A stretch of DNA of 64,000 nucleotides, taken from Ectocarpus siliculosus (taxonomy: Eukaryota; Sar; Phaeophyceae; Ectocarpales; Ectocarpaceae). Positions 30,799 through 47,120 of the stretch are shown here, one piece after another; within the stretch, counting starts at the first letter, position 1; each line of letters begins with the position of its first letter. The stretch covers positions 274,748 to 338,747 of the forward strand of contig FN648905.1 in the NCBI GenBank assembly GCA_000310025.1. Reading direction: 5' to 3'. The notes beneath the pieces are model-generated. The model ran no database searches. It saw nothing but the letters and a program-made list of their open reading frames with translations, and was not told where the DNA came from. The translations under genes were made by a program, and so were the position numbers.

Positions 30799-31098
30799 AG
30801 TTTAAAGGAGGGGAAGCCGTGGGTGGTAGCTTGCTCCTAGAGATAGATGAAGGTAGGTTCTGTCGTTGACACGCTTGTCCACGATCACGTAGAGATGAGA
30901 AAGTTGCTTGTTGTTGCTGAGAGACGATCAGCAAGGGTCTGAGGTGAAGTGGGGATCCAACTTCACCTCAGGGGGGTACGCAGACTAGACAAAATCCTAA
31001 GAGGGTAGGTGTCTGAAGGGTATACCTCCTGAGACCGACCCACATCCTATCAACAATAAGATGTACCCTATTTAAGCTAGCAGCCACACTCCTTAACA
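30799..31098 (-). repeat. Gypsy 3' LTR
   Basis: 300 bp. On minus it starts TGTTAAGGAG and ends CTCCTTTAAACT, forming an imperfect terminal inversion. It is identical to 41289-41588. Confidence 0.95.
30940..30970. promoter_or_regulatory. Perfect 11-bp hairpin in the 3' LTR
   Basis: TGAGGTGAAGT and ACTTCACCTCA flank a 9-base loop. It could act in RNA end formation or as a regulatory palindrome. The same hairpin lies at 41430-41460. Confidence 0.6.
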
Positions 31099-32367
31099 CT
31101 AGCCCACCCTGAATATCATATATGCAGATTCTATACTCAAATCAATGCTCAACTCCTAAAAGTTACAACGAAGATTTTAGCTGACGATTGATGCTCATGA
31201 ATCGAAGATATGACTCTTCACAAAACATCCAAAAAGGAGGGTGAGTTGTAGAAACATCCCGAATCAACCCCCACACCATCATTGAGACGAAAGATGGATG
31301 CGAACGGCCACGAGACGACACATCGACATCTCAATGACAACGCTCCTATCAATGAAGGGATAAGGCCAAGAAAAATATGTAGTGCTGCACAGCACGCTAT
31401 CCGCAACAGACGACGGCAAGAGAAATAAAGTCAAAACCTAAACGCCACACACCACTCGTTTACGCGCACCCGCGCGTATAACAATGGGAGGAATGAGGGC
31501 GACGACCCGAGAGAGCCCCAAAATGCTGTAACAAAACTCAAAACCCAAGCAAAATTTCCGAACGAATACGGCCTTTGATACTGGACGCGACGTAAAGGGG
31601 AAGATATCAACGCAACCAATCTAGGAAAGCGTCAAAGAAGAGCAGGAGAAATGAATGACAGGCGAACACACTGACAACAATTTCCAGAGTGTCAGAGAAC
31701 TCAAACCGTATAGAGAGGCGGCCACGGCAAGACCTGATGAAAACCAAGAATGCAAAGCATGAATGATCAACGTCTGAGAAGCGATCTGACGAACTTTCCC
31801 TGGCGCGCGGGCAAAGCACAACACAGGAAGACTCAGATAACACAGAAAAATCGCAGAGATACACACAACAACACAACGACTCAAGGGCTCGACGATGATG
31901 AAGGCGTCGCCGGCAGGTAGCGATGACGGAGACGAAGTGGAACGAAGTGTGGACGACGACGAATGTCCACGGGAGAAGACGACGCCACGGGATGGAAGCC
32001 CGAAGTAACAAGCCTAGATGACACTTCGGCGATACGGTGGAGCTAAAAAAAATGAGTTGGCGAAAGGCGAACCCAGGGAAACACGAGAAACTCGGGGTTT
32101 GCCTGGTCAGAGGCGAACATACCGACGAAACTTGGAGAACTCGTTGTTGAAGTGTTCAGAGGCAAACAACACCGACGAAACTTGGGGAACTCTTTTTCCA
32201 AGTGTTCAGAGGCAAATAACACCGACGAAACTTGGGGAACTCTTTTTCCAAGTGTTCAGAGGCAAACCACTCGAAGAAAACAAGAAGGAAAAGAAAAAAA
32301 AAAAAAAAAAAAAACGAACAAACAAACAAAATCCAAGATAGACCAGCTCGAACCTAAAACGGCGACG
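31099..32367 (-). other. Gypsy 3' untranslated region
   Basis: About 1.27 kb between the pol stop and the 3' LTR. Frames here are short and lack domain content. It includes a 50-bp tandem repeat (32124-32273) and an A-rich tract (32288-32325). Next to the LTR the minus strand reads CAGGGTGGGCTAG, a weak polypurine tract. Confidence 0.6.
32124..32273. repeat. 50-bp tandem repeat in gypsy 3' region
   Basis: GACGAAACTTGG begins copies at 32124, 32174 and 32224, each exactly 50 bp, ending AAGTGTTCAGAGGCAAA(T/C)A. The last two copies are nearly identical and the first is more diverged. Confidence 0.9.
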
Positions 32368-35300
32368 CTAGGAAGAGATATTGGGAACAGCCGACGGTAA
32401 GGAGTCAGTAATGGGAGGAGTGCGATCCCGGGCGTCGCCCAAAGGGCGCGAGCGATGTTTTTCTAAACACCACGATCCACAGACGGCGTCCAAGGCGGTG
32501 GAGTAGAGGTGCGCAGGCAGAGGGAGAACGCTGGGGCCCGGGTCATCCAGAAATCGAACGATGTACGAGCCATCCTGATGAGCACCAATACGTCCTGTCC
32601 ACCATAATCCGTCGCGGGCCTTGTACCACAGCCGCGCTCCTACTAGAAGGGGCGAAATGCTGAAACGACGGAGCCAAGTCGCGTGAAGCACAAGGTCAGC
32701 CCCAGGAGGCAAATAGCGTTCGCCACGATTCCGGGCGAGCTCCCGTTGTGCCGCGCGTGTCCGAGCCACTCGATACGTGCGGTTACCCTGCTTGCTTTGG
32801 CAGACCTCTCGAGACCAGTACAAGAGGATGTGTCGACGGAATTGATCGAGGTCGGACTCCCGTTCCCAAGAAGGAGTAGTCAGGCCTAGCCAATGCGTCT
32901 GGTACAGGACAGCGAGAACGCCGCTACGGCCCCGCACCAATTGGTGTCCCGAAATGTAGTCGACCTCGAGGCGCCCGACAGGCACCGACACATCATCCGC
33001 GGTGACGTGAAACGGTGGACATTTATCGCCGAAAGAGTGCAGGACATAACGCGAAAGCTCAGCGGGTAGAGATTGGGGCAGGTCGTCCTTCTCGTACGGA
33101 TTGCGACAGGGCTTGCAACGAAGGACAGATACGCGACATCGAGCTGCTGGGCCGGAAAGATCAGAAGGCAGGTCCAGGTAGAGGAGTTTACGCGCCAACG
33201 GGCTTCCATCTGGGGTGGCGTCGGCCGACGCGGGACCCACCGCAAGAACTTTGTAAGGCCCCGTCCAGGAAAGCGCGAATTTGGCCTTGAGCACCTGGTG
33301 ATCCGTGTCGTTCCGCACACCCTGTCGAATTGTAGCAGCCGTGTTGTAGACCCAAGCCCACCCGCCAACAGTAAATTGCGGGAGCTTATGGATGGCGTCC
33401 AGCAGGGATGAATTACGGCGTTCGACTCGCGAGATCTTCAGGGCGTTGTACTCACGGACCAGGTCGTAGGCCCGGCGCTGACGATCGACAGCCAAGTTGC
33501 AATACTCTAGTTGGTCACGGGCTAAGCTTTGATGACCCCCTACCGTTGGATGATCGAAGACCGAAAGCGGAAGCCGCGGAATGCGTCCGATATGGATCTC
33601 GTTCGGCGCCAATCCAGTCGACTGGTTCACGGAATTGTTGTAGGCAAATTCAACGTGCGGGAGATGTATGTCCCAATCGTTTTGCTGTTCGTTGACGACT
33701 ACCGCAAGCATCTGAGCCATCGTGTGATTGACGCGTTCCGTGCCGCCGTTGGTTTGCGGGTGGTAGGAGCTGGTGGTGACTTTCTTGATTTTCATCATCT
33801 CGTAGATCGCCATGGAGAGCTTCGAGCAAAAATGCAGTCCGTTGTCCGACAATAACGTAGTCGGACATCCCCACTTGGTCATGTACTGGTTGACGAAGAT
33901 GTGAGCCGTCCCTTTCGCCGTAAATTCCGCCGCTGTAACCGCGAACATGTCGGCTCTCCGGCTGAAACGGTCTGTGAACAATAGAATGTAGGAGTTGCCC
34001 TTGGCAGTCACGGGCAGGGGGCCGAAGAAGTCGACGCCTACGACCGTACCAGGCCCCTGTGGCAATGGCATAGCGATGACGGGCCACCAAGCGGTTTGAC
34101 GCGAAGTCTTGCGAGCTTGACACACCAAACACGCGCGAAGCCACCAGCGTACGGATCGATCCAGACCAATCCACCAGTAGAAACGCTCAAGCAGACGTTG
34201 TGTACGATGAACACCAAGATGGAAGGACGCGGCGGTATGGCAGGCATGAAGGACCCACGGACGCATCAACATGGGCACGTAGACACGGGGCACACCAGTA
34301 TCCGGTAGACGAGTGGTCCTGCCGCCAGAGCGCCCGATCGGCGATGGCGCCGGTTTATGTACGAGGAGGGTGACGTTCTCATCGGTCGTGTGCAGCCTGG
34401 TTTTCGCCGCCAACGCAAGGACATCGTCCAACCGAGGGGAGCGGAGCGGGGCACTAAGGGTGAGCAAGTCAGAAGGGGGGGGGAAGGGAGAGCCATGAGA
34501 CAGAAAGCGCATAGCCACCACGCATTCGCTCTCCCGCTGTTGTTCCCTAGCCCAGTCCACAGTGCCGAAACTCTGAACGCAAGCTCGCAAATGTGAGGGG
34601 TCCAAGTCAGTCGGCTCCAACCCAGAGACAAGCGATCCCACGGAAGAGGCTGGAGAACGAGGGGCCTCAACGAGTGGTGAAGTTGCAGACCGCGGTGTCA
34701 CCTCAGGAGGAGGCATTGGGCGGGGCGAAGTCCCAGGCGAAACCTGGATAGAGGGCAAAACCGAGGATGCAGCGCGCGCCGATGCCGGCGAAGGCATCTG
34801 TGGCGCAGAGGCAGTCGACGAAAACGCCGACGTTGACGTCGCAGATGACGGCAGGGGACGCGTGCCGGTCCGGATGGTCTTGTTTGTCGAGCGGGACCGG
34901 CTAGGACGACGGGCAGTGGACGATGCCCGAGGGACGATGGTAGCCCGCGGCTGGCGTCCGAAATAGGTGGGACCGGTGACGGTGCCTCCAGAAGCAGCGG
35001 TGGTCTTGGCCCGAGTTCGTGAAGAAATGAGCGGTCCCCGCTCCGGAAGCGAAGACAGGACGTGCACATATCTATTCGCCAAAGACGCGGCCGGAGACAT
35101 TCCGCGGGACGTAGCCGGAGCCAAACAGGAAACAGGCACCGGAGACGTGGAAACATGTGAGACCACGAAGACTCCCGAAGACCTCCGAGAATCTTGATAA
35201 TCAATCGGGGAGTCCGATCGAACATCCAGCAGGCGCGGGTGATGACGGCGGAAATCCCCAAAATCAGATGTCTGTAGCGCTGGGGGTGAAAAGACACCCG

Positions 35301-38300
35301 CCGAGCAGGGAGGGCGGAGCCCACCCAAACCGACCTCCGGCGTAGACGACGAGTGATAGTTGAGTCCACAAGCCCGAATGAGGAAGACACCAGCGTGATC
35401 GACACCATCAATGCAATCGGGGCCGGTTGTGTCCGTGTCTTGTGCTGGTAAAGGCAGCCGCGAAAGGAAATCCGCGTTGCCGTTTGCCGAACCTTTCCGA
35501 TATTTCAAGGTGTAGGTGAAGTTGGACAGGAATTCGAGCCATCGTTGTACCCTGGCGTTGTGTTCTCCAACCTTTCCAATGCTCTCTAAGGCTTTGTGAT
35601 CTGAATAGATGATGAACTTGGTTGACCACAAATAGCCCCGAAGGCGCTTAATGGCCCAAACAATGCCACCAGCTTCCAGATCCAGAACAGTCCAGTTCCG
35701 CTCCGCCGGAAGAGTAGCGCGGCTGATGTACACAATGGGTCTTACCGAGCCATCGAGTTGTTCTTGTTCCAGGGAGGCTCCAAAGCCGTCAATGCACGCG
35801 TCGGAGCACAAACGGAGAGGACGACTGTTGTCCTCGACCGCAGCCCAATCCGGGAAGACCAAAATCGGGGGACGCGCGAGTTCGCTCAACAACGTTTTGA
35901 CAAGCTTGACCATGCCCGGGGTGTACTTGAAGGGGACGCCTTGTTTGAGAAGAGAGTTGAGAGGCCGCACCTTGGTGGCGAGATTCTGAAGGAATTTCCG
36001 GTAGTAGCTGAGGCCACCGAGGAGGCTCCTAAGCTGCTTAACATTCGTCGGCGGCGGCATGTGCGTGAGCGCCCGAACCTTGACGCCATCAGGGCTAACC
36101 CCAGCCGGGGAGATGATGTGACCGAGGAAATTGGCGTGGGTGGCGCCGACACGAGCCTTCCCTGGAGACAGCTTGAGGTTGTACTGGCGCAGCCGTTTGA
36201 AAAACTCGATCATATTGAGCACGTGTCCCAGAGGTTCCTCATCGAAACAGATAACATCATCCAGATAGGCAAGCACACGCTCCAGACCGTGCACCACTCT
36301 GTTGATGACCTTGACGAACCAAGACGGGCTGGCATTGGCTCCTTGCGGCATCCGAAGCCATTCGAACAACTGCGTGGGAGTGCAAAAGGCGGTGAGCGGG
36401 ACAGTGTCTTCGTCACAAACGATCTGGTGGAAGGCCGAATTGAGATCGAAGATGGAGAACACTTTCCCGGTGTAGAGAGAATCCAAGATACCGTCCACCC
36501 GAGGGAGAGGTTGTCCATCCAAGTCCACCAGGGCGTTGAGTCGTTTGTAGTTGACGGTGATGCGAACCGATCCGTCCTTCTTGGGGATGACGACCAGGGG
36601 AGAAGCCCAGGGAGAAGTGGAATGCTGAATGAGCCCTGCCGCCAAATACTGGTCCAAGACGGCATCCACTTTCTTCTGCATTAACGGGTTAATACGATAC
36701 GGGCGTGATGCGACGGGCTTCGTGCCTGCGGGGACAGAAAGAGTGAATGGCATGACGGTGCAGGAACCAAAATCGGTTTTCGAAGTAGAGAACACGTCGG
36801 AATACTCAACAAGGGCGTCGGCCAAACGATCAATAGCCTCCGGTGTCCATCCCGGGTTGTGTAGATCGAAAGCGATGTCGTGCATATGTGCGGGCAGCCT
36901 AGTCCACAATCGCAGAAAACTGGAGCGCTGGGCCTCGGAGAAGCGGTCAAGCAGTTCTTGTGGAGGCGGCTTCGGAGGAGGCGGGGCGGAGGCTGGGTCC
37001 GGAGAGCGGCGAGTCCCGGACTTGGGGCCAACGGCATTGACCCGATGCGGTGATGTAGAGGACGGGGGGGCGGTGGGAGTCGAAGATGGAGCCGCCTTCA
37101 GGGTTTCTACCGGTACTCGTAATAGCGGTGCAGCAGACACGCCAATAACGTCGCCCGGCTCCAATTCGGCACAACCTGCAAGGGGAATACGCTGAAGACC
37201 ATTGGAAACAAATGCATCGGGGGACGAAAGTGCACCCACTTCAGGTCGGAACGATACGAGATATTCGCCGATCAGCGCAGGCATGCCCGAAGAACGGACG
37301 AGGTCCACCTCAACAAGGGCCGGCTCCGGCCCCAAGGAAATGCCCGAGCTCCCTGCATATTTGAGGTGAAACGAAGAGGCAGGAGCGTCGTCGTGCGTAG
37401 CGTAAACACACGCGCCAGCGGTGAAACGTGGAGAGAGCGTGAGCTCGCCCATAACCCGGCCGTCCGGTCCAGGGTGGGGGAGGGTGGTGAACACTCGAGA
37501 GTTGAACCGCATCCAGCTATCGCGACCCAGAAGCACGGCGTGCCCCATGGCGGCATCTGGAACAACGCAGGCCCAGACCGCCAACGAAGCGGTAGCTCGA
37601 GCTCCATGAAGAAAATTAACGGTGAGACGAACTGACCGAGTGGTCACAAGGGCGGGTCCATCACCAAACCCACCCCAACGACGAGAGGGCGAAACACGAA
37701 CGCTGCCAGCTGTCAAGGCTCCAGCAGCTATCATGGCGGTGACCACGGAGTCAGACACAAAAGACGCAGGAGATCCAGAGTCCAGCAGCGCCATTCGCGC
37801 CAGTTGAGAAGTGGCTGTAGGTCCTCCATGCAGCAGAACCCGGGTGGTGTAAGAGTCCGAGTCCAACAGGAGCGTGCCGCCGACCAGATCGGGCCCGTGT
37901 TCCAGAAGAGGAGGTTGGTCTGCACAAGCGGAGGTCGAGGCCACCAGATGAACACCAGGAGCATGGTCCCCCGGAGCGTCCAAATGGAGACAGGCTGGGT
38001 CTTCACCCCGGTCCTCCCGTGACGACGAACCGGCCGCGGTAGCAACCTCGTGGATGCGTCTACGGCCATGTGGAGAAGGCTGCGAAATGGGAGGTGCGGG
38101 AGAAGTGGAGGCGGGGAGAGCTTCGCCAGACAGGGGATGATCACGCAAAAGGCGCCGAACTTCCATCAAAGCTTTTCCCAACAAGTTTTTACCGCTAGAC
38201 GCCCACTTGGATGAAACGCTAGCCTCCGGAAAGCATGCAGACATGCCGATACCCCAAACACGATCGAAGGGGCTAGCTTCCGCAAGGAGGCGGGTACCCG

Positions 38301-39501
38301 TCTCCAGTAGATGTTGTTTCATGTCGCGGTTTTGAGCGAATTTGGCATACGACCCCGTAAGCACGATCTCTTCTCGACGATGCTCCCATTCAGCATAGTC
38401 AAAAGGACGGACGTTACGACCCAAGTACTTGTGTGTCTTAGGATCTGGTGCAGCCATGATTTTGTCATACGACGTCATATCCCCAAACAACTTCGCTTTT
38501 TCAGACATCATAAATTGCTCACCACATGAATAACGTACCCCCAGTACGTCAAAAGCCGAGGGAGTCCATTGCGAGAACACAGACGGAGGTTTCCAGAAGA
38601 GGAGGACGTCATCCGAAGCGTACTCGCATTTGTCATCAAACGGCGGAGCCGGTGCAGGGCGCAGCGGCAAAGAGCGGGCACCAGGCACGGGCGGGGGTGG
38701 GTCAAGCGGACGGGTCCTCATCTCCGACGGGGAGGACCCAGAAAGCGAGGGAGGAGCGGGCGAAGTCGCTCCGGTCCATGATCCGGAGGGCGGCCTACGG
38801 GCGGCGGCTCCGGCGAGGTCAATGTTAGCAGAGGCCATTCGGCTATTAGAGACCTGTTCGTTAAGAGAAGTCTTTCCTGCGGCAGACGGATATGTGTGAA
38901 TGGACGCAGGGCGCTCTGGACTACTCCCCCGTGACAAAGGAGCCGAACCTTCCACAGAACGGTGGGCACTACCATCCGATCCCGATGGCAGTGGTGCAGT
39001 CAGCACGTTGTGGGCAGCAGAGGAAGACGCATTCGTATCAGGTGCTGCCACACGGGGGCAGCGGACGGTCGAAGACAACGAAAGCTGCGAAAGAGAAGGA
39101 GAATCGACGGGGTCCCTGACGAGTGTAGAAGAAGGCTCGTGTGCTATCATCCGAGAAGAGGCCCGGCTGACAATACCAGGAGAGTCTTGGCGAACAGTAG
39201 TAGACGAGGTTCTTGTTCCTTCTGTAACCCGAGACGGCGAGGTGAGCAGGGGTGAACCACTCGACGTCTTACCTCCCTGTCGCCCACACCACAAAGGTTG
39301 TGCCGGAGTGGGTTTGTCATGTCCAATACCAGCAGACGATGAGGTGGGTGACGAGGAGGCGGGCCGAGAAACTAGACGTGATTTGGGGGCGTGGGGAGTA
39401 TCCAAAGAAGTAGGCTGTACACGAACATCCTGAGAGACTCCAAAAGGGTGCACGGTGGTTGCTAGTGACGGTAGTACCGGCTGAACTCCGCCATCGGCAT
39501 G
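32368..39501 (-). CDS. pol: Gypsy pol: NADAR, protease, RT, RNase H, integrase, chromo-like
   Basis: 2,377 codons open from the base after the gag UGA. The first ATG is over 100 codons in, so I infer synthesis as a gag-pol fusion. Numbering from that codon: a disordered ~290-residue lead; a NADAR domain at 296-453; retroviral-type protease with LLDSGSPAS (DSG at 574-576); RT with motifs IFDLNSAFHQ and YLDD (1079-1082); RNase H with CSDACIDGFG (Asp 1234). Next comes a Ser/Pro-rich spacer of ~290 residues, then the integrase zinc finger (H1752, H1761 or H1765, C1791, C1794) and its core with D1824, D1886 and E1922, a proper DD35E. After that come a chromodomain-like segment (about 2176-2230) and a Tudor-like segment (VGARLWYKARDGLWWTGRIG, about 2284-2336). 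All catalytic residues are present. It ends in TAG at 32368-32370. Confidence 0.95.
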   Translation of the reverse strand, partial: HADGGVQPVLPSLATTVHPFGVSQDVRVQPTSLDTPHAPKSRLVSRPASSSPTSSSAGIGHDKPTPAQPLWCGRQGGKTSSGSPLLTSPSRVTEGTRTSSTTVRQDSPGIVSRASSRMIAHEPSSTLVRDPVDSPSLSQLSLSSTVRCPRVAAPDTNASSSAAHNVLTAPLPSGSDGSAHRSVEGSAPLSRGSSPERPASIHTYPSAAGKTSLNEQVSNSRMASANIDLAGAAARRPPSGSWTGATSPAPPSLSGSSPSEMRTRPLDPPPPVPGARSLPLRPAPAPPFDDKCEYASDDVLLFWKPPSVFSQWTPSAFDVLGVRYSCGEQFMMSEKAKLFGDMTSYDKIMAAPDPKTHKYLGRNVRPFDYAEWEHRREEIVLTGSYAKFAQNRDMKQHLLETGTRLLAEASPFDRVWGIGMSACFPEASVSSKWASSGKNLLGKALMEVRRLLRDHPLSGEALPASTSPAPPISQPSPHGRRRIHEVATAAGSSSREDRGEDPACLHLDAPGDHAPGVHLVASTSACADQPPLLEHGPDLVGGTLLLDSDSYTTRVLLHGGPTATSQLARMALLDSGSPASFVSDSVVTAMIAAGALTAGSVRVSPSRRWGGFGDGPALVTTRSVRLTVNFLHGARATASLAVWACVVPDAAMGHAVLLGRDSWMRFNSRVFTTLPHPGPDGRVMGELTLSPRFTAGACVYATHDDAPASSFHLKYAGSSGISLGPEPALVEVDLVRSSGMPALIGEYLVSFRPEVGALSSPDAFVSNGLQRIPLAGCAELEPGDVIGVSAAPLLRVPVETLKAAPSSTPTAPPSSTSPHRVNAVGPKSGTRRSPDPASAPPPPKPPPQELLDRFSEAQRSSFLRLWTRLPAHMHDIAFDLHNPGWTPEAIDRLADALVEYSDVFSTSKTDFGSCTVMPFTLSVPAGTKPVASRPYRINPLMQKKVDAVLDQYLAAGLIQHSTSPWASPLVVIPKKDGSVRITVNYKRLNALVDLDGQPLPRVDGILDSLYTGKVFSIFDLNSAFHQIVCDEDTVPLTAFCTPTQLFEWLRMPQGANASPSWFVKVINRVVHGLERVLAYLDDVICFDEEPLGHVLNMIEFFKRLRQYNLKLSPGKARVGATHANFLGHIISPAGVSPDGVKVRALTHMPPPTNVKQLRSLLGGLSYYRKFLQNLATKVRPLNSLLKQGVPFKYTPGMVKLVKTLLSELARPPILVFPDWAAVEDNSRPLRLCSDACIDGFGASLEQEQLDGSVRPIVYISRATLPAERNWTVLDLEAGGIVWAIKRLRGYLWSTKFIIYSDHKALESIGKVGEHNARVQRWLEFLSNFTYTLKYRKGSANGNADFLSRLPLPAQDTDTTGPDCIDGVDHAGVFLIRACGLNYHSSSTPEVGLGGLRPPCSAGVFSPPALQTSDFGDFRRHHPRLLDVRSDSPIDYQDSRRSSGVFVVSHVSTSPVPVSCLAPATSRGMSPAASLANRYVHVLSSLPERGPLISSRTRAKTTAASGGTVTGPTYFGRQPRATIVPRASSTARRPSRSRSTNKTIRTGTRPLPSSATSTSAFSSTASAPQMPSPASARAASSVLPSIQVSPGTSPRPMPPPEVTPRSATSPLVEAPRSPASSVGSLVSGLEPTDLDPSHLRACVQSFGTVDWAREQQRESECVVAMRFLSHGSPFPPPSDLLTLSAPLRSPRLDDVLALAAKTRLHTTDENVTLLVHKPAPSPIGRSGGRTTRLPDTGVPRVYVPMLMRPWVLHACHTAASFHLGVHRTQRLLERFYWWIGLDRSVRWWLRACLVCQARKTSRQTAWWPVIAMPLPQGPGTVVGVDFFGPLPVTAKGNSYILLFTDRFSRRADMFAVTAAEFTAKGTAHIFVNQYMTKWGCPTTLLSDNGLHFCSKLSMAIYEMMKIKKVTTSSYHPQTNGGTERVNHTMAQMLAVVVNEQQNDWDIHLPHVEFAYNNSVNQSTGLAPNEIHIGRIPRLPLSVFDHPTVGGHQSLARDQLEYCNLAVDRQRRAYDLVREYNALKISRVERRNSSLLDAIHKLPQFTVGGWAWVYNTAATIRQGVRNDTDHQVLKAKFALSWTGPYKVLAVGPASADATPDGSPLARKLLYLDLPSDLSGPAARCRVSVLRCKPCRNPYEKDDLPQSLPAELSRYVLHSFGDKCPPFHVTADDVSVPVGRLEVDYISGHQLVRGRSGVLAVLYQTHWLGLTTPSWERESDLDQFRRHILLYWSREVCQSKQGNRTYRVARTRAAQRELARNRGERYLPPGADLVLHATWLRRFSISPLLVGARLWYKARDGLWWTGRIGAHQDGSYIVRFLDDPGPSVLPLPAHLYSTALDAVCGSWCLEKHRSRPLGDARDRTPPITDSLPSAVPNISS
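38143..38616 (-). other. NADAR (YbiA/DUF1768-like) domain within gypsy pol
   Basis: About 158 residues. Recognised by LLFWKPPSVFSQW at the start, GEQFMMSEKAKLF (family pattern S/G-E-x-x-x-x-x-x-K), VLTGSYAKFAQNRDMKQHLL, FDRVWGIGMSA and the closing SGKNLLGKALMEVRRLL. The order and spacing match stand-alone NADAR proteins, and the conserved Glu, Trp-Gly-x-Gly and NLLGKALMEVR elements are all kept, so the fold and active site are probably intact. Family members act on ADP-ribose-containing compounds: riboflavin-pathway intermediates, and removal of ADP-ribose from guanine bases in nucleic acid. Its place between gag and protease suggests release as a separate enzyme or packaging in particles. 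Confidence 0.88.
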
Positions 39502-39504
39502 TCA
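39502..39504 (-). promoter_or_regulatory. In-frame UGA separating gag and pol (readthrough site)
   Basis: The codons are AAG-AAA-TGA-CAT. Gag and pol share one frame and this is the only stop in nearly 2,960 codons. UGA followed by C is the leakiest termination context in many eukaryotes. Readthrough would yield a small fraction of gag-pol, as in gammaretroviruses, which use a UAG. I see no ATG for pol or slippery heptamer nearby that would offer another route. Confidence 0.7.
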
Positions 39505-41247
39505 TTTCTTACCCTTCCAGCCCCTCTTAGCCGAAGTGGAAGTCTCCGATGAGGATTCTGTGTGCGAGGACTGTTTCATGTCCGATGTGTCAGATGAACG
39601 GCGGGCGCGTCCCGAGGAGTGAGCACGGGGTGGGTTGCGTCCGGTAGGTCGTCTATACGAGGTCATGCGCTTTTTCCACCGACTCCAAAGTGTGGGATCT
39701 TTTTCCATGCAGAGCTTGATATCATTGTTAAGCAGGCCTGTGGCGTTAATGAACCCACGAGTACAAGATTTGAAGGAGTGGTCTTCCCCTAAGCAGTTGA
39801 GGCACTTGCCCTTGTACAGCCGAAGCGCGTTGCGGCGGTCTTCAGCCGAGACCAAGGGGGTGAACAATGGCGGATCATTCTTGGTTAGAGCCATCTCACT
39901 AGCGACGTTGTATACCTCTGGAAAGTGTCCTTGCAGCGGCCAGTCGCTGTAGTGCAACAGAAAAGGGTCTCGATCATCATAAGGTAGAGGGTCAACACTC
40001 ATCACCGCAGCCGAAGAACCTGGACTCCACGAAGGGGTCACCGACGACCGCAACGCCGAAGAAGCTACAGCACGCGAAACAGCAGACGAACTCCGAGCAT
40101 TCGTGGAAGACACCGAAAAAAAATCGTCACCATGTACCGCCGGCGTGTGCGCGAATGCCCGCTTGTCCAACACATCCCACATATCGTCCAAACACGAAGC
40201 ATGTCGCCCAAAAGGGGCTTCCATGGAGAGCTGCTCATCCTTGTACACCTGTCCAGACACTACGGGAAACTGCTTCAACATGGAGTCTCGAACAGCTATC
40301 TGCACTTGTGCATCCGAAGGCTTGAACGCGTGATGAGAAACCATGACAGTCATGGCCAGAGCCTTATAGCGACGAATGTATTCTCCGTACGTCTCGCCGG
40401 TGGACACGCCAAAACTACGAAGGCGATCGATCCCCGAGCTCTTGTCTTGAGTGTCCCAGGCGGCCGCCAATTTCTGGATAAAGAACGCGTACGTCGAGGG
40501 CCCGGCCGGTTCCTTGCGCAGATGGTTTTCTACCTGTTGGAAAGTGGCATCAAGAAATTCCAGCGTGGCACGGTTGGTGGTTTGACCTTCAACGACAGCA
40601 GCACGAACACGTTTGCGCAACAACGGAAGCCATCCTGCGACCCAGGTGGAGGAAGCGAAAGTCTGCTTGCGTTTGACGTCGCTTTTGTTGAGGATCTCGG
40701 TGACCACGCCCTTGCAGCTAGACGCGAAACGAGCAAATTCATCAGGATCAGAACCAAGGGGCAAGCGTGTGACACTATCAAGTTGGTCCGGCTTCAGCTT
40801 GTCCATCTTGTCTTGAATGCGGATGGTGTCGGCCTCCGCTGCAGCGGCGTCCGCAGCGTCCAAAGCCTCCTGCCTCGTCCTCGCCCCCGTGGAAGACAAA
40901 GGCAAGCTAGCATCATCCTGAGGCAACGGCGATGTCGCGTTGGCCGGTGACGCCATGACGTGGCCGGTCGCCGGGCGAGGATCGATCAGGATAGACGTAC
41001 GCGGGAGGGGGGGGGGCACCACCAAAGGCTGTTGTAGCAGAGCTGGGGCGGTCGACGCTGATGACACCACCAAAGGCTGTTGCGGCAGAGCTGGAGCGGT
41101 CGACGCTGATGACACCACCAAAGGCTGTTGCGGCAGAGCTGGGGCGGTCGACGCTGATGACACCACCAAAGGCTGTTGCGGCAGAGCTGGGGCGGCCGGC
41201 GCTGATGACGATGACACTGCCAGGACCACAATGGATTCGAAACCCAT
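39505..41247 (-). CDS. gag: Gypsy gag
   Basis: 581 residues from the ATG at 41247 (MGFESIVVL), 13 bp after the primer binding site. The frame is open upstream into the LTR, but those codons lie in the leader. The N-terminal part carries four 16-residue LPQQPLVVSSASTAPA repeats. The middle is a helical capsid-like segment (for example QVENHLRKEPAGPSTYAFF and GETYGEYIRRYKALAMTV). Near the C-terminus a CCHC zinc knuckle CLNCLGEDHSFKSC is followed by a Ser/Arg/Lys-rich tail suited to RNA binding. It would assemble the particle and package the element RNA. The stop codon is the UGA at 39502-39504. Confidence 0.92.
41017..41208. repeat. 48-bp coding minisatellite in gag, four copies
   Basis: CACCACCAAAGGCTGTTG starts copies at 41017, 41065, 41113 and 41161, exactly 48 bp apart. 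Each encodes 16 residues of gag on minus, so copy-number change keeps the frame. Confidence 0.92.
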
Positions 41248-41260
41248 TGTGATTTCACGC

Positions 41261-41288
41261 GCAGGTTCATATCCTGCCGCTGACGCCA
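41261..41288 (-). promoter_or_regulatory. Primer binding site of the gypsy element
   Basis: Begins TGG right after the LTR. The 28 bases are complementary to a tRNA 3' end consisting of CCA, an 8-base acceptor strand (CGCTGACG) and a complete T arm with a GCAGG/CCTGC stem. The discriminator G and the acceptor strand would suit a serine tRNA, but that identity is a guess. The gag ATG lies only 13 bp downstream. Confidence 0.75.
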
Positions 41289-41588
41289 AGTTTAAAGGAG
41301 GGGAAGCCGTGGGTGGTAGCTTGCTCCTAGAGATAGATGAAGGTAGGTTCTGTCGTTGACACGCTTGTCCACGATCACGTAGAGATGAGAAAGTTGCTTG
41401 TTGTTGCTGAGAGACGATCAGCAAGGGTCTGAGGTGAAGTGGGGATCCAACTTCACCTCAGGGGGGTACGCAGACTAGACAAAATCCTAAGAGGGTAGGT
41501 GTCTGAAGGGTATACCTCCTGAGACCGACCCACATCCTATCAACAATAAGATGTACCCTATTTAAGCTAGCAGCCACACTCCTTAACA
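41289..41588 (-). repeat. Gypsy 5' LTR
   Basis: 300 bp, identical to 30799-31098. On minus it is followed immediately by TGGCGTCAGCGG, the primer binding site, which fixes the LTR end at 41289. Confidence 0.95.
41430..41460. promoter_or_regulatory. Perfect 11-bp hairpin in the 5' LTR
   Basis: Same 11-bp inverted repeat as at 30940-30970, in the copy that would serve as promoter. Confidence 0.6.
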
Positions 41589-41721: not shown

Positions 41722-43669
41722 GCTGTACACGTCCACGACATCGTAAAAGACGACTTGCGTCGGAAAGTTGACAAGCAAGAGTTTGTCCGCCTGGAAGGAG
41801 ATGCTCTTGCTAATGCAGACAACGCTGCACGGCACGCTTAGGCTGAAGTCCAGGACATGACAGCCGCCGAAACGCTCACGCGGAGGGATCTAGAGCAGTA
41901 CGGGGCGGATCCCACAACTGGTGGAGACGCTGAAAAACACGAAGATCCTTGACATGCTGCATTTCAAGGATGCTGCCAGGGGTGATGCATCAGGGCTCGC
42001 CGGGATGGTGAAGGACATCTGGAAAACGTTCAGCAAACACCATCTAAAAGTGGCTAATCACTACGTGAAGAACCTACAGGCGGCGTTTCGAGTGGCACGG
42101 CTCCCGTGCTTGGAGTCTTTGGTGTTCACGCTCACATACGGAGGACTCCCGTTGGGGCTCGATCTCCCCGAACGTGACCTGTACGAGAACCACTTGCAGT
42201 TCAAGGATGTCTCGGGGTTCGGTGTGGCTACGAGGGCGGTGCTGGCCAAGGCAAAGAGAGAAGGCGATTTCTACGGCTTTTTGAACTACGCCCCCGTCAT
42301 TAAGCTACTCTCCGTCACCCGACCCGTCGAGATGGGTCGAGTCCAGCCCACCAGCGAGCACTCAAATACTGTCGCCAAATGCCGGAAGTCCTTTCGGGAG
42401 ATGAGGGCTGTTTTCGCCTACTCCGGGTCGACCACCCGGGAAAAGGACATGGGGGCCGCGTGGACGGTGCACGAAGCCTACTGCCTCCACTACGCTTCGA
42501 GCATAAAGGTCGCGGCCACCCGTCTTGAAAATGCGCAGAAGAAGATGGGCGGTGGCGTAAAGAAATCCAACGGGAGGATACCAGACATGACAGCGAAGGA
42601 GTGGAATAAATGCGTCACCATCATGGATACGGTGGTGAGGCGCAGCTCATGCGATGCCATAATGGAGGATGTTGGAGCAGAGGGGATCAAGATGTGCCAA
42701 GAAGTTCTCCTGGTGGACCCAGACACCATCGGCCACACCGTCGACGAGGCCCTCTTCATGCCTGGGGTACGCGAGAAAGAGATCAGGAGCATAGTGAAGC
42801 GTCTCAAGGGCAAGTTTGGCGCTGCTGAGGTGAGATTTCAAAGGGATTGGACTGAGTTCAAGTAACTTGTCTCGAAGACTTGAACATTAAATCAGCACTA
42901 TTTACAACGGGATGGGTTTTTCTCTCGTGTTTGTTTTTGCTCAGATCGCTCTCTTCAGCTGGCATGGCTCTCCTGGACGGGATTCACAACATCTGCCTTC
43001 GGTCACAATATCTGCTCATGATGGTGGCACGCGAAGGCTACAGGAAACTACAGCTAAACGCTCACGGTGAGTACGTGGTGCTGACGGAGGTACTTCTTCC
43101 CCTGGAAAACAAGAGCACCAGGTCCACAGACAAAACCGTTGACGGCACCTGTATCACCCACTTCAAGGGACCCGATACGGAAAAGGTTTGCGGTGATGCT
43201 TGTCATCCTTCACCCGCTGATGCGGAAGCTACTCCCGCAAGGAAAGCAGCTGTGCGCCGAGGTTGGCCCCTTCACCGCAAGCGGCGAGGTGTTCACCGAC
43301 ACCCAGTTGCAGCATCTCTTCGAGCACATCGGGTGGAACTTGATCGGGATCCCGAAGTGGGGGTACAATATCAACCGCTCCCTCATCATCACGGACGCTT
43401 GTATTGTGGCTTTTCAACAAGGCAAATACGCCAAATGTCCCATGATGGATGCTGTACGCTACGGGGCTCGCATGAGCGAGGATCAGATGCTGGGAAACTA
43501 CAACCAAGCAAGCTACGGAGTGTTGAATGCGACCCCGTCTTCTGATGCATACAAGTGTGGATCGTTGGCCAGAGTTAGTCGGCTTAGGATGGAACACGCG
43601 AACACGCGAAGAGGTCTTTGTCATTTCATACTGCATCCGTGTTGTGCTCGTGGCCATGCTATGAGGTAA
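41722..43669 (+). pseudogene. Tyrosine-recombinase-like gene, Crypton-type?, decayed
   Basis: Coding sequence starts in one frame at about 41722 (DIVKDDLRRKVDKQEF) and meets a TAG near 41816. It continues to about 41920 before the main frame takes over (LKNTKILDMLHF). The main exon ends at 42861 with a GTAACT donor. An 83-bp intron ends in TTGTTTTTGCTCAG (42944) and phase 2 joins cleanly to SLSSAGMALLDG. A further frame change near 43190 leads to MLVILHPLMRKLLPQ. The C-terminal part reads like a tyrosine recombinase: YNINRSLIITDAC in the place of H-x-x-R (Asn for His) and GARMSEDQMLGNYN with a possible nucleophile Tyr. The N-terminal helical half (VANHYVKNLQAAFRVARLP) would suit a core-binding domain. 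The frame then runs into satellite sequence. The assignment rests on pattern only. Another transposon protein is possible. Confidence 0.4.
42862..42944 (+). other. Predicted 83-bp intron
   Basis: GTAACT donor and TTTGTTTTTGCTCAG acceptor. Removal joins two coding frames in phase and replaces the TAA stop at the end of the first. Confidence 0.55.
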
Positions 43670-46600
43670 CAAACAACTAGTATGAATCCAATAAATATTC
43701 AGTGGTGGTAACACAACATATGGTCTGCAAACGTATTCCTGAAGGTGAAACTCAGCCTCAGGGTCACCTCTTTGAGAATCCTAAATAGAGAAACCGACCA
43801 CCGACGACCTGACCGCGGAGGACCCAGTGGCCGAACGCGTGAAGACACAATCGAAGACGCGAACAAGCGAACACGTAGGACGCGAACACGCGAACACGCG
43901 AACAAGCGAAAAAACCAACACGCGAACACACGAACACGTGAAGACACAAGCGAACACGCGAATACGCGAACACGTAAGACGCGAACAAGCCAACAAGCGA
44001 ACAAGCCAACACGTGAACATACGAACACGTGAAGACACAAGCGAACACGCGAACAAGCCAACCCGCAAACACGCAAGCACGTGAAGACACAAGCGAAGAC
44101 GCGGACAAGCGAACAAGTCTACACGCGAACACGAGAACCCGCGAACACGCTAACACACAAACACGCGAACACGTAAGACGCGAACACGCGAACAAGCGAA
44201 CAAGCCAATACGCGAAGACACAAGCAAAGAGGCGAACAAGGGAACACGCGAACATGTAAGACGCGAACACGCGAAGAGGTCTTTGTCTGTCATTTCATAC
44301 CGGATCCGTGTTGTGCTCGTGGACATGTCTTGAGATATCAAACAACTATGGTTTGAATCCAAGAAATATATGGTGGTGGTAACACAGGATATGGTCTAAA
44401 AACGTATTCCTGAAGCTGAAACTCACCCTCAGGGTCACATATCTGACAATCCAAAAACAAAGAGAAACCGAGCACCGACGACCTGACATCCGTAGACCCG
44501 GTGGCCGAACACATGAACACGAGAACACGTGAACACGAAAACACGCGAACACGCGAAGAGGTCTTTGTCATTTTCTACCGGATCCGTGTTGTGCTCGTGG
44601 CCATGTTACGAGGTATCAAACAACTGTGGTTTGAATGCAATAAATATTCAGTGGTGGTCACACAACAAATGGTCTGGAAACGTAATCCTGAAGCTGAAAC
44701 TCAGCCTCAGAGTCAATCTTCGGGGATCCTAAATAGAGAAACCGAGCACCGACGACCTGACCGCCGAGGACCCGGTGGCCGAACACGTGAAGACACAAGA
44801 GAAGACGCGAACACGTAAGACGCGAAGACGCGAACAAGCGAACAAGCCAACACGCGAATACACGAACAAGTGAAGACACAAGCGAACCCGCGAACACGCT
44901 AACAACACGCGAACACGTAAACCGCGAACAAGCGAACAAGCCAACACGCGAACACGTAAGACGCGGAGACGCGAACAAGCGAACAAGCCAATACACGAAC
45001 ACTCGAACACGTCAAGACACAAGCGAACACGCGAATTAGCGAACACGCGAACAAACGAACACGCGAACACGGGAACACGAGGAGAACACGCGAACGCGAA
45101 AGACGCAAACACGCGAACAAGCGAACAAGCCAATACGCGAACCACTACCACGTGAAGACACAAGCGAACACGCGATCAACCGAACACGCGAACACGAGAA
45201 CACGCGAACACGCAAGACGCGGAGACGCGAACAAGCGACCAAGCCAATACGCGAACCACTACCACGTGAAAACACAAGCGAAGACGCGAACAAGCGAAGA
45301 CGCGATCAAGCGAACCCGCGAACGCGCGAACACGTAAGACGCAAGCGCGCGAAGAGGTCTTTGTCATTTCATACCGGCTCCGTGTTGTGCTCGTGGCCAT
45401 GCTATGAGGCAACAAACAACTTGGTTTGAATCCAATAAATATTTATGGTCTGCAAACGAAATCCTGAAGCTGAAACTCAGCCTCAGGGCCACATCTTTGA
45501 GAATCCTAAAAAGAGAAACCGACCACCGACGATCTGACCGCCATGGACCCGGTGGCCGAACGCATGAAGACACAATCGAAGACGCGAACAAGCAAACACG
45601 TAACACGCGAACACGCGAAAAACCCAACACGCGAACACACGAACACGTGAAGACACAAGCGAACACGCTAACACGCTAACACGCTAACACGCGAATACGC
45701 GAACACGTTAGACGCGAACAAGCGAACAAGCGAACAAGCCAACACGTGAACATACGGCCACGTGAAGACACAAACGAACACGCGAACAAGCGAATAAGCC
45801 AACTGTGCTCGTGGCCATGCTATGAGGTAACAAACAACTATGGTTTAAATCCAATCAATACTCAGTGGTGGTAACACAAGAAATGGTCTAAAAACGTATT
45901 CCTGAAGGTGAAACTCACCCTCAGGGTCACATCTCTGACATTCCAAAAAAGAGAAACCGAGCACCGACGACCTGACCGCCGTGGACCCGGTGGCCGAACA
46001 CATGAACACGAGAGCAAACACGCGAACACGCGAACAAGCGAACACGCGAACACGCGAAGAGGTCTTTGTCATTTCATACCGGCTCCGTGTTGGGGCCGTG
46101 GCCATGCCACGAGGTAACAAACAACTGTGGTTTGAATCCAAGAAATATTCAGTGGTGGTCACACAACAAATGGTCTGGAAACGTAATCCTGAAGCTGAAA
46201 CTCAGCCTCAGGGTCAATCTTCGGGGATCCTAAATAGAGAAACTGACCACCGACGACCTGACCGCCGAGGACCCGGTGGCCGAACACGTGAAGACACAAG
46301 CGCAGACGCGAACACGCGAACACGTAAGACGCGAAGATGCGAACAAGCGAACAAGCCAACACGCGAACACACGAACAAGCGAACAAGCCAACACGGGAAC
46401 GCACGAACACGTGAAGACACAAGCGACCCCGCGAACCCGCAAACACGCGAACACGCGAACAAGCGAACAAGCCAACACGCGAACACACGAACAAGTGAAG
46501 ACACAAGCGAACCCGCGAACACGCTAACACGCAAACACGCGAACACGAAAACACGCGAACACGCGAACAAGCGAACACGCGAACACGCGAACACACGAAC

Positions 46601-47120
46601 ACGTGAAGACAAAAGCGACCCCGCGAACACGCTAACACGCTTACACGCAATCACGTAAGACGCGAACACACGAACAAGCGAACAAGCCAATACGCGAACA
46701 CACGAACACGTGAAGACACAAGCGAAGACGCGAACAATGAAGACGCGAACAAGCGAACACGCGAACACGAAAACACGCGAACACGCATACACGCGAAGAC
46801 GTCTTTGTCATTCCATACCGGATTCGGGTTGTGCTCGTGGCCATGCTATGAGGTAACAAACAACTATGGTTTTAATCCAATAAATATTCAGTGGTGGTCA
46901 CACAAGATATGGTCTAAAACCGTATTCCTGAAGATGAAACTCAGCCTCAGGGTCAGTCTTCGGGAATCCTAAAGAGAGAATCCGAGCACCGACGACCTGA
47001 CCACCGAGGACCCGATGGCCGAACACGTGAAGACACAAGCGAACCCGCGAACCCGCGAACACACGAACACGCGAACAAGCGAACAAGCCAATACGCGAAC
47101 CCGTGAACACTTGAAGACAC
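43607..47120. repeat. Higher-order satellite: 8-bp words plus ~230-bp cores
   Basis: Seven copies of a conserved core (GAGGTCTTTGTCATTTCATACC..., GTGGCCATGCTATGAGGTAA, AATAAATATTCAGTGGTGG, CGACGACCTGACCGCC) have the GTGGCCATG word at about 43651, 44321 (variant GTGGACATG), 44599, 45393, 45811, 46099 and 46838. Between cores run arrays of 8-bp words: GCGAACAC, GCGAACAA, GCCAACAC, GTGAAGAC and ACAAGCGA. The words recur in preferred order, giving a longer unit near 56 bp (seven words). Long open frames here (NTRTREHA-type peptides) are by-products of an 8-bp period that lacks stops. Confidence 0.92.

What the first reader, a model, noticed from the sequence alone, without database searches (positions are those of the whole stretch)
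38143..38616. A NADAR (YbiA-like) domain is built into a Ty3/gypsy Pol
Seen: a complete NADAR signature (GEQFMMSEKAKLF, FDRVWGIGMSA, GKNLLGKALMEVR) between gag and the protease of an intact element with identical LTRs, so it is retained, not debris. Known: NADAR proteins act on ADP-ribose-linked substrates, including removal of ADP-ribose from guanine. Inference: the element carries an enzyme that reverses ADP-ribosylation of its RNA or cDNA, or otherwise counters an ADP-ribose-based host response, much as some retroviruses carry dUTPase.
Basis: partly seen in the sequence, partly recalled or inferred. Interest (0 to 1): 0.92.

Follow-up and report, generated by a model that had tools for sequence, protein, structure and literature searches.

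The report
ADP-ribose-cleaving domain inside a retrotransposon polyprotein
A jumping gene in what looks like a brown-alga genome carries, inside its own polymerase protein, a bacterial-type enzyme domain that in other organisms removes ADP-ribose from DNA and RNA; the arrangement was already reported for the brown alga Ectocarpus in 2025, and here its active site and its conservation by selection are documented.

Summary
Pol of the Ty3/gypsy element at 30799-41588 (minus strand) holds a complete NADAR domain (Pfam PF08719, E 6.6e-45; window 38143-38598) between the Gag zinc knuckle and the protease. It is no one-off: the genome gives 150 NADAR matches (a capped count) in at least eight subfamilies, 55-78% identical to the window's domain. 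Synonymous sites are near saturation while the protein is conserved (dN/dS 0.13-0.21 in the 3 of 28 pairs not saturated). Of 13 residues named around ADP-ribose in the solved Phytophthora NADAR, 11 are identical in the window's copy. The model (pLDDT 95.8) matches that structure best. One related element of the same layout lacks the domain. Nearest sampled relatives are Myxococcota/Planctomycetota YbiA proteins.

It is not new: Dinatale et al. 2025 (PMC12477816) describe a NADAR at the N terminus of Pol in one Ectocarpus Gypsy lineage, probably bacterial, with a suggested RNA-processing role. Added here: active-site residues, purifying selection, one clade of the domain, a NADAR-less relative. 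Function stays inferred: most likely an ADP-ribosyl hydrolase acting on element RNA/cDNA or on an ADP-ribose-based host response. No host enzyme writing the mark was identified.

The parts
30799..31098 (-). 3' LTR
   Evidence: identical to 41289-41588 over 300 nt
41289..41588 (-). 5' LTR
   Evidence: identical to 30799-31098
41264..41288 (-). primer-binding site, complementary to the 3' end of tRNA-Ser(CGA)
   Evidence: 21 of 22 nt plus CCA; three tRNA-Ser(CGA) genes found by ARAGORN
39502..41247 (-). Gag frame (581 aa from the first ATG after the LTR) ending in TGA-C, in the same frame as Pol
   Evidence: no Pfam match
39763..39804 (-). Gag CCHC zinc knuckle
   Evidence: motif CLNCLGEDHSFKSC
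32368..39453 (-). Pol open frame, 2361 aa from GTG; continuous with Gag apart from one TGA
38599..39453 (-). low-complexity Ser/Pro-rich Pol linker, loosely constrained
   Evidence: pN/pS 0.72 in 7 family-A copies; contrast with NADAR only suggestive, p 0.08
38143..38598 (-). NADAR (YbiA-subfamily) domain
   Evidence: PF08719 E 6.6e-45; model pLDDT 95.8; best fold match 8bau
38278..38280 (-). E392, equivalent of the Phytophthora NADAR Glu125 beside the distal ribose
   Evidence: E in 61 of 61 copies
38518..38520 (-). E312, equivalent of Glu43
   Evidence: E in 60 of 61 copies
38497..38499 (-). K319, equivalent of Lys50
   Evidence: K in 56 of 61 copies
37753..37788 (-). aspartic protease motif LLDSGSPASFVS
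   Evidence: motif by eye, no Pfam match
36112..36588 (-). reverse transcriptase
   Evidence: PF00078 E 4.3e-25, residues 956-1114
35518..35832 (-). RNase H
   Evidence: PF17917 E 1.3e-27, residues 1208-1312
33757..34278 (-). integrase: zinc-binding and core
   Evidence: PF17921 E 9.9e-14; PF00665 E 1.8e-6, under its cut-off
32812..32967 (-). possible chromodomain
   Evidence: PF00385 E 0.19, under cut-off; MPP8 chromodomain chains at E 1.5-1.8

Best explanation
The domain is a catalytically competent YbiA-subfamily NADAR, acquired from a bacterial-type YbiA protein, most simply once, and sitting in the Pol linker of one Ty3/gypsy lineage, where selection on the element has kept it. It is made as part of Gag-Pol (Gag and Pol share a frame split by one TGA, probably by readthrough), so it should be packaged into the virus-like particle next to the reverse transcriptase. 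There it most likely hydrolyses the N-glycosidic bond of ADP-ribose attached to bases of the element's RNA or cDNA (guanine is the nucleobase target shown for NADARs in the papers read), undoing a host or stress modification that would block reverse transcription. Shown here: fold, active-site residues, retention, one clade of the domain, position. Inferred: expression by readthrough, packaging, activity, substrate, and the benefit.
For: Profile E 6.6e-45. The model with pLDDT 95.8 matches 8bau, the P. nicotianae NADAR with ADP-ribose, at E 6.9e-12, TM 0.86, and YbiA next. Of 13 residues that PMC11543638 names around ADP-ribose (all 13 reproduced on the 8bau chain with one offset), 11 (E43 K50 K75 G78 R79 V81 W89 R93 E125 D130 W133) are identical in the window's copy, in 41 of 41 of the 40 top-ranked copies plus the window, and in 10 of 20 copies picked further down (51 of 61 in all). 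Selection: pN is below pS in 28 of 28 subfamily pairs; the 3 of 28 pairs with pS under 0.65 give dN/dS 0.16, 0.13 and 0.21. RT in the 3 pairs available has pN 0.22-0.26, NADAR in the same pairs 0.23-0.33. The 8 element NADARs form one clade, 98/89. A relative with the same layout lacks it. All NADARs tested in PMC11833690 removed ADP-ribose from guanosine in RNA, and P. nicotianae and myxobacterial members act on guanosine-ADPr too (PMC11543638, PMC11125620; passages and sections read).
Against: No activity or expression data. E. coli YbiA also acts on riboflavin intermediates (PMC11543638), so the fold does not fix the substrate. Two of the 13 residues differ: Y84 is Phe in 58 of 61 copies, and D86, which binds the adenine-side ribose in 8bau, is Asp in 1 of 61; no copy of 61 is identical at all 13. 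Subfamily G (2 of 2 copies seen) has lost K50 and K75. The NADARs tested were inactive on phosphate-end and on uracil ADP-ribosylation (passages of PMC11833690 and PMC13036486), so a guanine-modifying writer is needed, and none was found: DarT none, KptA none, PARP only 4 weak exon-sized matches. Other Gypsy elements of the genome seem to do without the domain: 76 of 150 RNase H hits have none of the scored NADAR hits 1-6 kb upstream (lists capped).
Confidence: 0.5

Rival explanations
1. The NADAR is an active N-glycosidase, but its substrate is a small molecule: a cyclic or linear ADP-ribose signal, or another NAD-derived product of the host's stress or antiviral response.
For: PMC9503650 (passages) posits that viral NADARs might prefer soluble ADPr derivatives of host conflict systems or by-products of RNA processing. 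The conserved pocket is the ADPr pocket and says little about what is attached to it.
Against: Another section of the same paper supports macromolecular ADP-ribosylation as the target of NADARs embedded in eukaryotic RNA-virus polyproteins beside the polymerase, the closest parallel to this layout. A particle-bound enzyme is poorly placed to clear a diffusible signal (inference).
Confidence: 0.22
2. The domain is kept for binding (ADP-ribosylated chromatin or proteins, or RNA) or as a structural part of Gag-Pol; catalysis is not needed.
For: Subfamily G keeps the domain with K50 and K75 replaced, at dN/dS 0.21 against D. This Pol also has a possible chromatin reader near its C terminus.
Against: The two glutamates at the distal ribose are nearly invariant (E125 in 61 of 61, E43 in 60 of 61 copies). 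Of the 13 sites, 12 are invariant among 7 subfamily representatives (p 6e-5 against random columns; 10 of 13, p 0.0026, with G included); such sites may also be kept for the fold.
Confidence: 0.18
3. The domain performs a metabolic N-glycosidase reaction of the E. coli YbiA type (clearing reactive riboflavin intermediates).
For: It belongs to the YbiA subfamily by its Glu at position 125.
Against: No obvious benefit to a retroelement. Sequence similarity to E. coli YbiA is weak (2b3w, E 1.7e-4); YbiA was not a row of the tree.
Confidence: 0.05
4. The domain is a passenger with no function, captured and carried along.
For: Within family A the contrast with the loosely constrained linker is only suggestive (Fisher p 0.08); within families C and E pN/pS is 0.44 and 0.57.
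Against: pN is below pS in 28 of 28 subfamily pairs and dN/dS is 0.13-0.21 where it can be measured; active-site residues kept.
Confidence: 0.05

Closest known systems
NADAR-bearing Gypsy lineage of Ectocarpus sp. 7 (e.g. Gypsy-12_Ec32; Dinatale et al. 2025, PMC12477816)
   Same: [quoted passage not shown] Gypsy-12 also with a putative chromodomain
   Different: The window's family could not be compared with Gypsy-12_Ec32 letter by letter; that assembly is 200.2 Mb, this one 189.5 Mb in 492 contigs. The parts of the paper that I read report no active-site analysis, selection test or NADAR-less sister element; its supplements were not available.
Tx1 LINE ORF1 NADARs of Crassostrea gigas (PMC12477816)
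   Same: NADAR carried by a retrotransposon
   Different: non-LTR element, domain in ORF1; described there as divergent hits
NADARs in polyproteins of nidoviruses and other positive-strand RNA viruses (PMC9503650; BFVD matches)
   Same: domain embedded in a polymerase-bearing polyprotein
   Different: RNA viruses, RdRp; lower identity (20-27% in the rows named as polyproteins or RNA polymerase)
P. nicotianae NADAR, PDB 8bau
   Same: fold and 11 of 13 named residues around ADP-ribose; hydrolyses guanine-ADPr (PMC11543638)
   Different: stand-alone protein; about 14 residues near the C-terminal part have no counterpart in the window's copy; N-terminal extension not compared
Myxobacterial YbiA, antitoxin of YarT (PMC11125620)
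   Same: YbiA subfamily; the nearest sampled bacterial relatives of the element domain include Myxococcota
   Different: toxin-antitoxin gene pair; the C. crocatus protein itself was not in the tree, and no ART was recognised by eye beside four sampled relatives
dUTPase of some retroviruses (recalled)
   Same: accessory nucleic-acid hygiene enzyme inside Gag-Pol; in betaretroviruses between nucleocapsid and protease
   Different: unrelated fold and chemistry

Membership tests
NADAR superfamily (Pfam PF08719) | profile score above the curated cut-off, whole domain | tested here: met
   153.7 bits vs 35.1, profile 2-163 of 163
NADAR superfamily (Pfam PF08719) | YbiA/NADAR fold | tested here: met
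   model pLDDT 95.8; 8bau E 6.9e-12, YbiA 2b3w E 3.1e-8, next match E 2.8
NADAR superfamily (Pfam PF08719) | residues that hold and cleave ADP-ribose | tested here: met
   11 of 13 identical in the window copy, the other two F for Y84 and Y for D86; catalytic E43, K50, E125 all present
NADAR superfamily (Pfam PF08719) | ADP-ribosyl hydrolase activity | not testable with these tools
   needs purified protein
YbiA subfamily of NADAR | Glu (not Asp or His) at the position of P. nicotianae E125 | tested here: met
   E392 in the window, Glu in 61 of 61 copies; criterion from PMC11543638 section 12
YbiA subfamily of NADAR | core domain without the N-terminal extension of DarT1-linked NADARs | tested here: inconclusive
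   the model of the 168-residue piece shows the core only; the low-complexity linker before it was not modelled
Ty3/gypsy (Metaviridae) | RT, RNase H, integrase in that order, with a protease motif before them | tested here: met
   integrase core under its Pfam cut-off, zinc-binding part over it
Ty3/gypsy (Metaviridae) | LTRs and tRNA primer-binding site | tested here: met
[quoted passage not shown]
   subfamilies A-E with RT downstream; F, G and H seen as NADAR only
NADAR-bearing Gypsy lineage of Ectocarpus (Gypsy-12_Ec32) | C-terminal chromodomain | tested here: inconclusive
   PF00385 E 0.19, under cut-off; fold model pLDDT 39
NADAR-bearing Gypsy lineage of Ectocarpus (Gypsy-12_Ec32) | sequence identity to the published family | not tested
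DarT-NADAR toxin-antitoxin system | a linked ADP-ribosyltransferase toxin | tested here: not met
   no such domain in Pol or Gag, no DarT match in the genome, six frames

The most novel reading that the evidence does not exclude
The element-encoded NADAR is a working eraser of guanine ADP-ribosylation packaged with the reverse transcriptase. That would mean brown algae mark retroelement RNA or cDNA with ADP-ribose as a defence not yet described, and that one retrotransposon lineage has countered it for long enough that synonymous sites between its subfamilies are saturated.
Probability: 0.25. Interest if true: 0.88.

Novelty: already known. Interest (0 to 1): 0.52.

Why it matters
Nucleic-acid ADP-ribosylation has few known roles in eukaryotes. 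A retroelement that keeps the active-site residues of an eraser under purifying selection is an unusual pointer to where such a modification might matter, and it can be tested with one purified domain. The fusion itself is published for Ectocarpus; its likely catalytic competence, its retention by selection and its single clade make the functional question concrete.

Tried and rejected
A lone or decayed insertion was rejected: 150 matches and eight subfamilies. A chance or truncated motif was rejected by profile and fold. Giant-virus origin was considered: the nearest sampled relatives are bacterial (best four 53-57% identity), viral contigs reach 31-47%, and the tree puts L077-L079 (Myxococcota and Planctomycetota MAGs) beside the element clade with 83/89, which is not full support. 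That tree used 25 of 71 loci of genome contigs and 11 of 15 viral loci (13 were read out; L150 and L160 were dropped as near-copies, L159 and L161 were not read) plus 8bau, whose long branch makes its place unsure; it held no other eukaryote, so a eukaryotic intermediate is not excluded. The RT tree (24 rows; 3 of 15 fetched loci without NADAR, L009, L010 and L165, were dropped for short matches; 'without NADAR' rests on the capped list, except for L168) could not settle whether L168 lies outside the NADAR clade (49/45, in 45% of bootstrap trees; no AU test was run). The within-family selection contrast with the linker is only suggestive (Fisher p 0.08). A fold of the Pol C terminus failed (pLDDT 39) and was not searched. 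KptA, DarT and ART searches gave nothing; introns could hide such genes, and the ART search had no working control. No ART was recognised by eye beside four of the nearest bacterial relatives; no profile was run on those neighbours.

Full report
What is there. The window carries a Ty3/gypsy element on the minus strand between two LTRs of 300 nt that are identical (30799-31098 and 41289-41588). Directly inside the 5' LTR lies a primer-binding site for tRNA-Ser(CGA): the 22-nt complement occurs exactly only in the window itself and with one mismatch at three other places in the genome, all three tRNA-Ser(CGA) genes by ARAGORN. Gag (39502-41247, 581 aa from the first ATG after the LTR, CCHC zinc knuckle at 39763-39804) is followed in the same frame, after one TGA, by a 2361-aa Pol frame (32368-39453) with protease motif, RT, RNase H and integrase in Ty3/gypsy order.

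The NADAR. Residues 286-437 of Pol match PF08719 from profile position 2 to 163 of 163, E 6.6e-45. phmmer against the PDB finds two chains, 8bau (E 2.4e-17) and YbiA 2b3w (E 1.7e-4). An AlphaFold2 model from a 32-sequence alignment has mean pLDDT 95.8 and pTM 0.90. Foldseek ranks 8bau, the P. nicotianae NADAR with ADP-ribose, first (E 6.9e-12, TM 0.86) and YbiA second; the next match has E 2.8.

Active site. PMC11543638 (passages and section 12 read) names the residues around ADP-ribose in the P. nicotianae enzyme. All 13 that I checked fall on the right letters of the 8bau chain with one offset. Eleven of the 13 (E43 K50 K75 G78 R79 V81 W89 R93 E125 D130 W133) are identical in the window's copy; the other two are Phe for Y84 and Tyr for D86. 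I looked at 61 copies: the window, the 40 top-ranked matches, and 20 picked further down the list, mostly for low score or odd length. The eleven are all kept in 41 of 41 of the first set, which is ranked by profile score and so biased towards intact copies, and in 10 of 20 of the second; 51 of 61 in all. No copy matches at all 13: Y84 is Phe in 58 of 61, and D86 is Asp in 1 of 61. Glu at E125, the mark of the YbiA subfamily, is present in 61 of 61. Among representatives of seven subfamilies 12 of the 13 sites are invariant (61 of 155 columns are; p 6e-5); with subfamily G included 10 of 13 (p 0.0026). Subfamily G (2 of 2 copies seen) lacks K50 and K75, and three low-scoring copies (L057, L058, L068) carry an out-of-frame stretch between indels across this region.

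Retention. The genome (189.5 Mb, 492 contigs) gives 150 NADAR matches over the cut-off, with 150 of 230 candidates scored. 73 of these 150 have an RNase H match 1-6 kb downstream, and 74 of 150 listed RNase H matches have a NADAR upstream; both lists are capped. The copies seen fall into at least eight subfamilies, A (the window's) to H: A 9, B 10, C 4, D 6, E 12 of the first 41 copies, and F, G and H among the 20 fetched later. Two of the 41 have a stop inside the NADAR. Among eight representatives pN is below pS in 28 of 28 pairs (pN 0.07-0.36, pS 0.27-0.85). In the 3 of 28 pairs with pS under 0.65, dN/dS is 0.16 (A-H), 0.13 (D-F) and 0.21 (D-G). RT in the 3 of 10 pairs where it could be read has pN 0.22-0.26, NADAR in the same pairs 0.23-0.33. 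Within family A, 7 of its 9 copies give pN/pS 0.72 for the Pol linker, 0.15 for NADAR and 0.23 for RT-RNase H, but counted as distinct changes the linker-NADAR contrast is only p 0.08. Within-family NADAR ratios vary (0.07-0.57 over five families), as expected when copies also decay after insertion.

Origin. A scan of bacterial and archaeal genomes found 71 loci; the first three (Deltaproteobacteria, Polyangia and Planctomycetota MAGs) are 57%, 54% and 53% identical, in open frames of 187-235 codons stop to stop. Of viral contigs it found 15, best 47%. In a tree of 45 domains the eight element NADARs form one clade (98/89), next to L077-L079 with 83/89. No eukaryotic NADAR but 8bau was in it. 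A related element, L170 plus L168 (C24:3719600-3723909), has a Gag zinc knuckle, a stop (TAG), a low-complexity linker, protease and RT (46% identical to the window's over 271 residues). In L170, which spans Gag to RT, no NADAR shows in six frames by a profile that finds the window's at E 1.1e-69. Whether it branches before the NADAR clade or lost the domain is unresolved (49/45).

Host. The genome has at least 150 EsV-1-7 cysteine-motif matches (150 of 880 candidates scored), a family that I recall as expanded in brown algae; with the literature below this points to a brown alga, species not determined. Possible ADP-ribosylation genes: four PARP exon-sized matches, E 4.5e-6 to 4.3e-4, two of them with a stop inside, one Macro exon, no DarT, no KptA, no ART, the last without a working control.

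What is known. Dinatale et al. 2025 (PMC12477816; passages and part 1 of 2 of section 5 read) report that the families of one of four Gypsy lineages of Ectocarpus sp. [quoted passage not shown] they also find NADARs in Tx1 LINE ORF1 proteins of the Pacific oyster. Searches for NADAR or YbiA with retrotransposon, transposable element, brown alga or Gypsy listed no other such report that I could recognise from titles and the start of abstracts; two searches listed 20 of 104 and 20 of 139 papers, and only open-licence papers are held. NADARs reverse guanosine ADP-ribosylation on DNA (PMC11543638; PMC11125620, sections 6 and 7) and on RNA (PMC11833690, passages), were inactive on phosphate ends and, for the bacterial ones tested, had no or negligible activity on uracil (PMC13036486, passages), and sit in RNA-virus polyproteins (PMC9503650, passages).

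Most likely working. An active NADAR made within Gag-Pol, carried in the particle with the RT, and clearing ADP-ribose from bases of the element's RNA or cDNA (0.5). The main rivals are a small-molecule ADPr substrate (0.22) and a binding role without catalysis (0.18). Steps shown are the fold, the active-site residues, retention and position; readthrough, packaging, activity, substrate and benefit are inferred.

Verdict. The interpretation stays a good, untested hypothesis. Because the fusion is in print for Ectocarpus, I file it as already known and score its interest for the functional question it opens.

Noticed in passing
39502-39504 and loci L017-L056: Gag and Pol share one frame split by a stop codon followed by C: TGA-C at the same place in 8 of 9 family-A copies and 5 of 10 of B, and TGA-C upstream in 2 of 4 of C and 7 of 12 of E; no such stop was seen in D (0 of 6, reach about 1.27 kb). 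The NADAR-less relative has TAG-T. This looks like programmed stop readthrough; not tested.
   Followed up: partly
41264-41288: Primer-binding site matches tRNA-Ser(CGA), 21 of 22 nt plus CCA.
   Followed up: yes
32518-32967: Pol C terminus has a weak chromodomain match (E 0.19) and behind it a strand-rich stretch with a Tudor/SH3-like look by eye; model confidence too low to decide.
   Followed up: partly
L057, L058, L068: Three NADAR copies of two subfamilies (B and D) carry an out-of-frame stretch between indels over the same ADPr-binding part of the domain; in one (L057) the surrounding frame of 2346 codons stays open. Possibly a selection effect of the search.
   Followed up: partly
L062, L066: Subfamily G NADARs have Thr and Glu in place of K50 and K75.
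   Followed up: no
L168, L170: A Gypsy element of the same RT clade and layout without NADAR.
   Followed up: partly
43600-47050: Dense arrays of an 8-nt unit (GCGAACAC-like) mixed with longer repeated segments.
   Followed up: no
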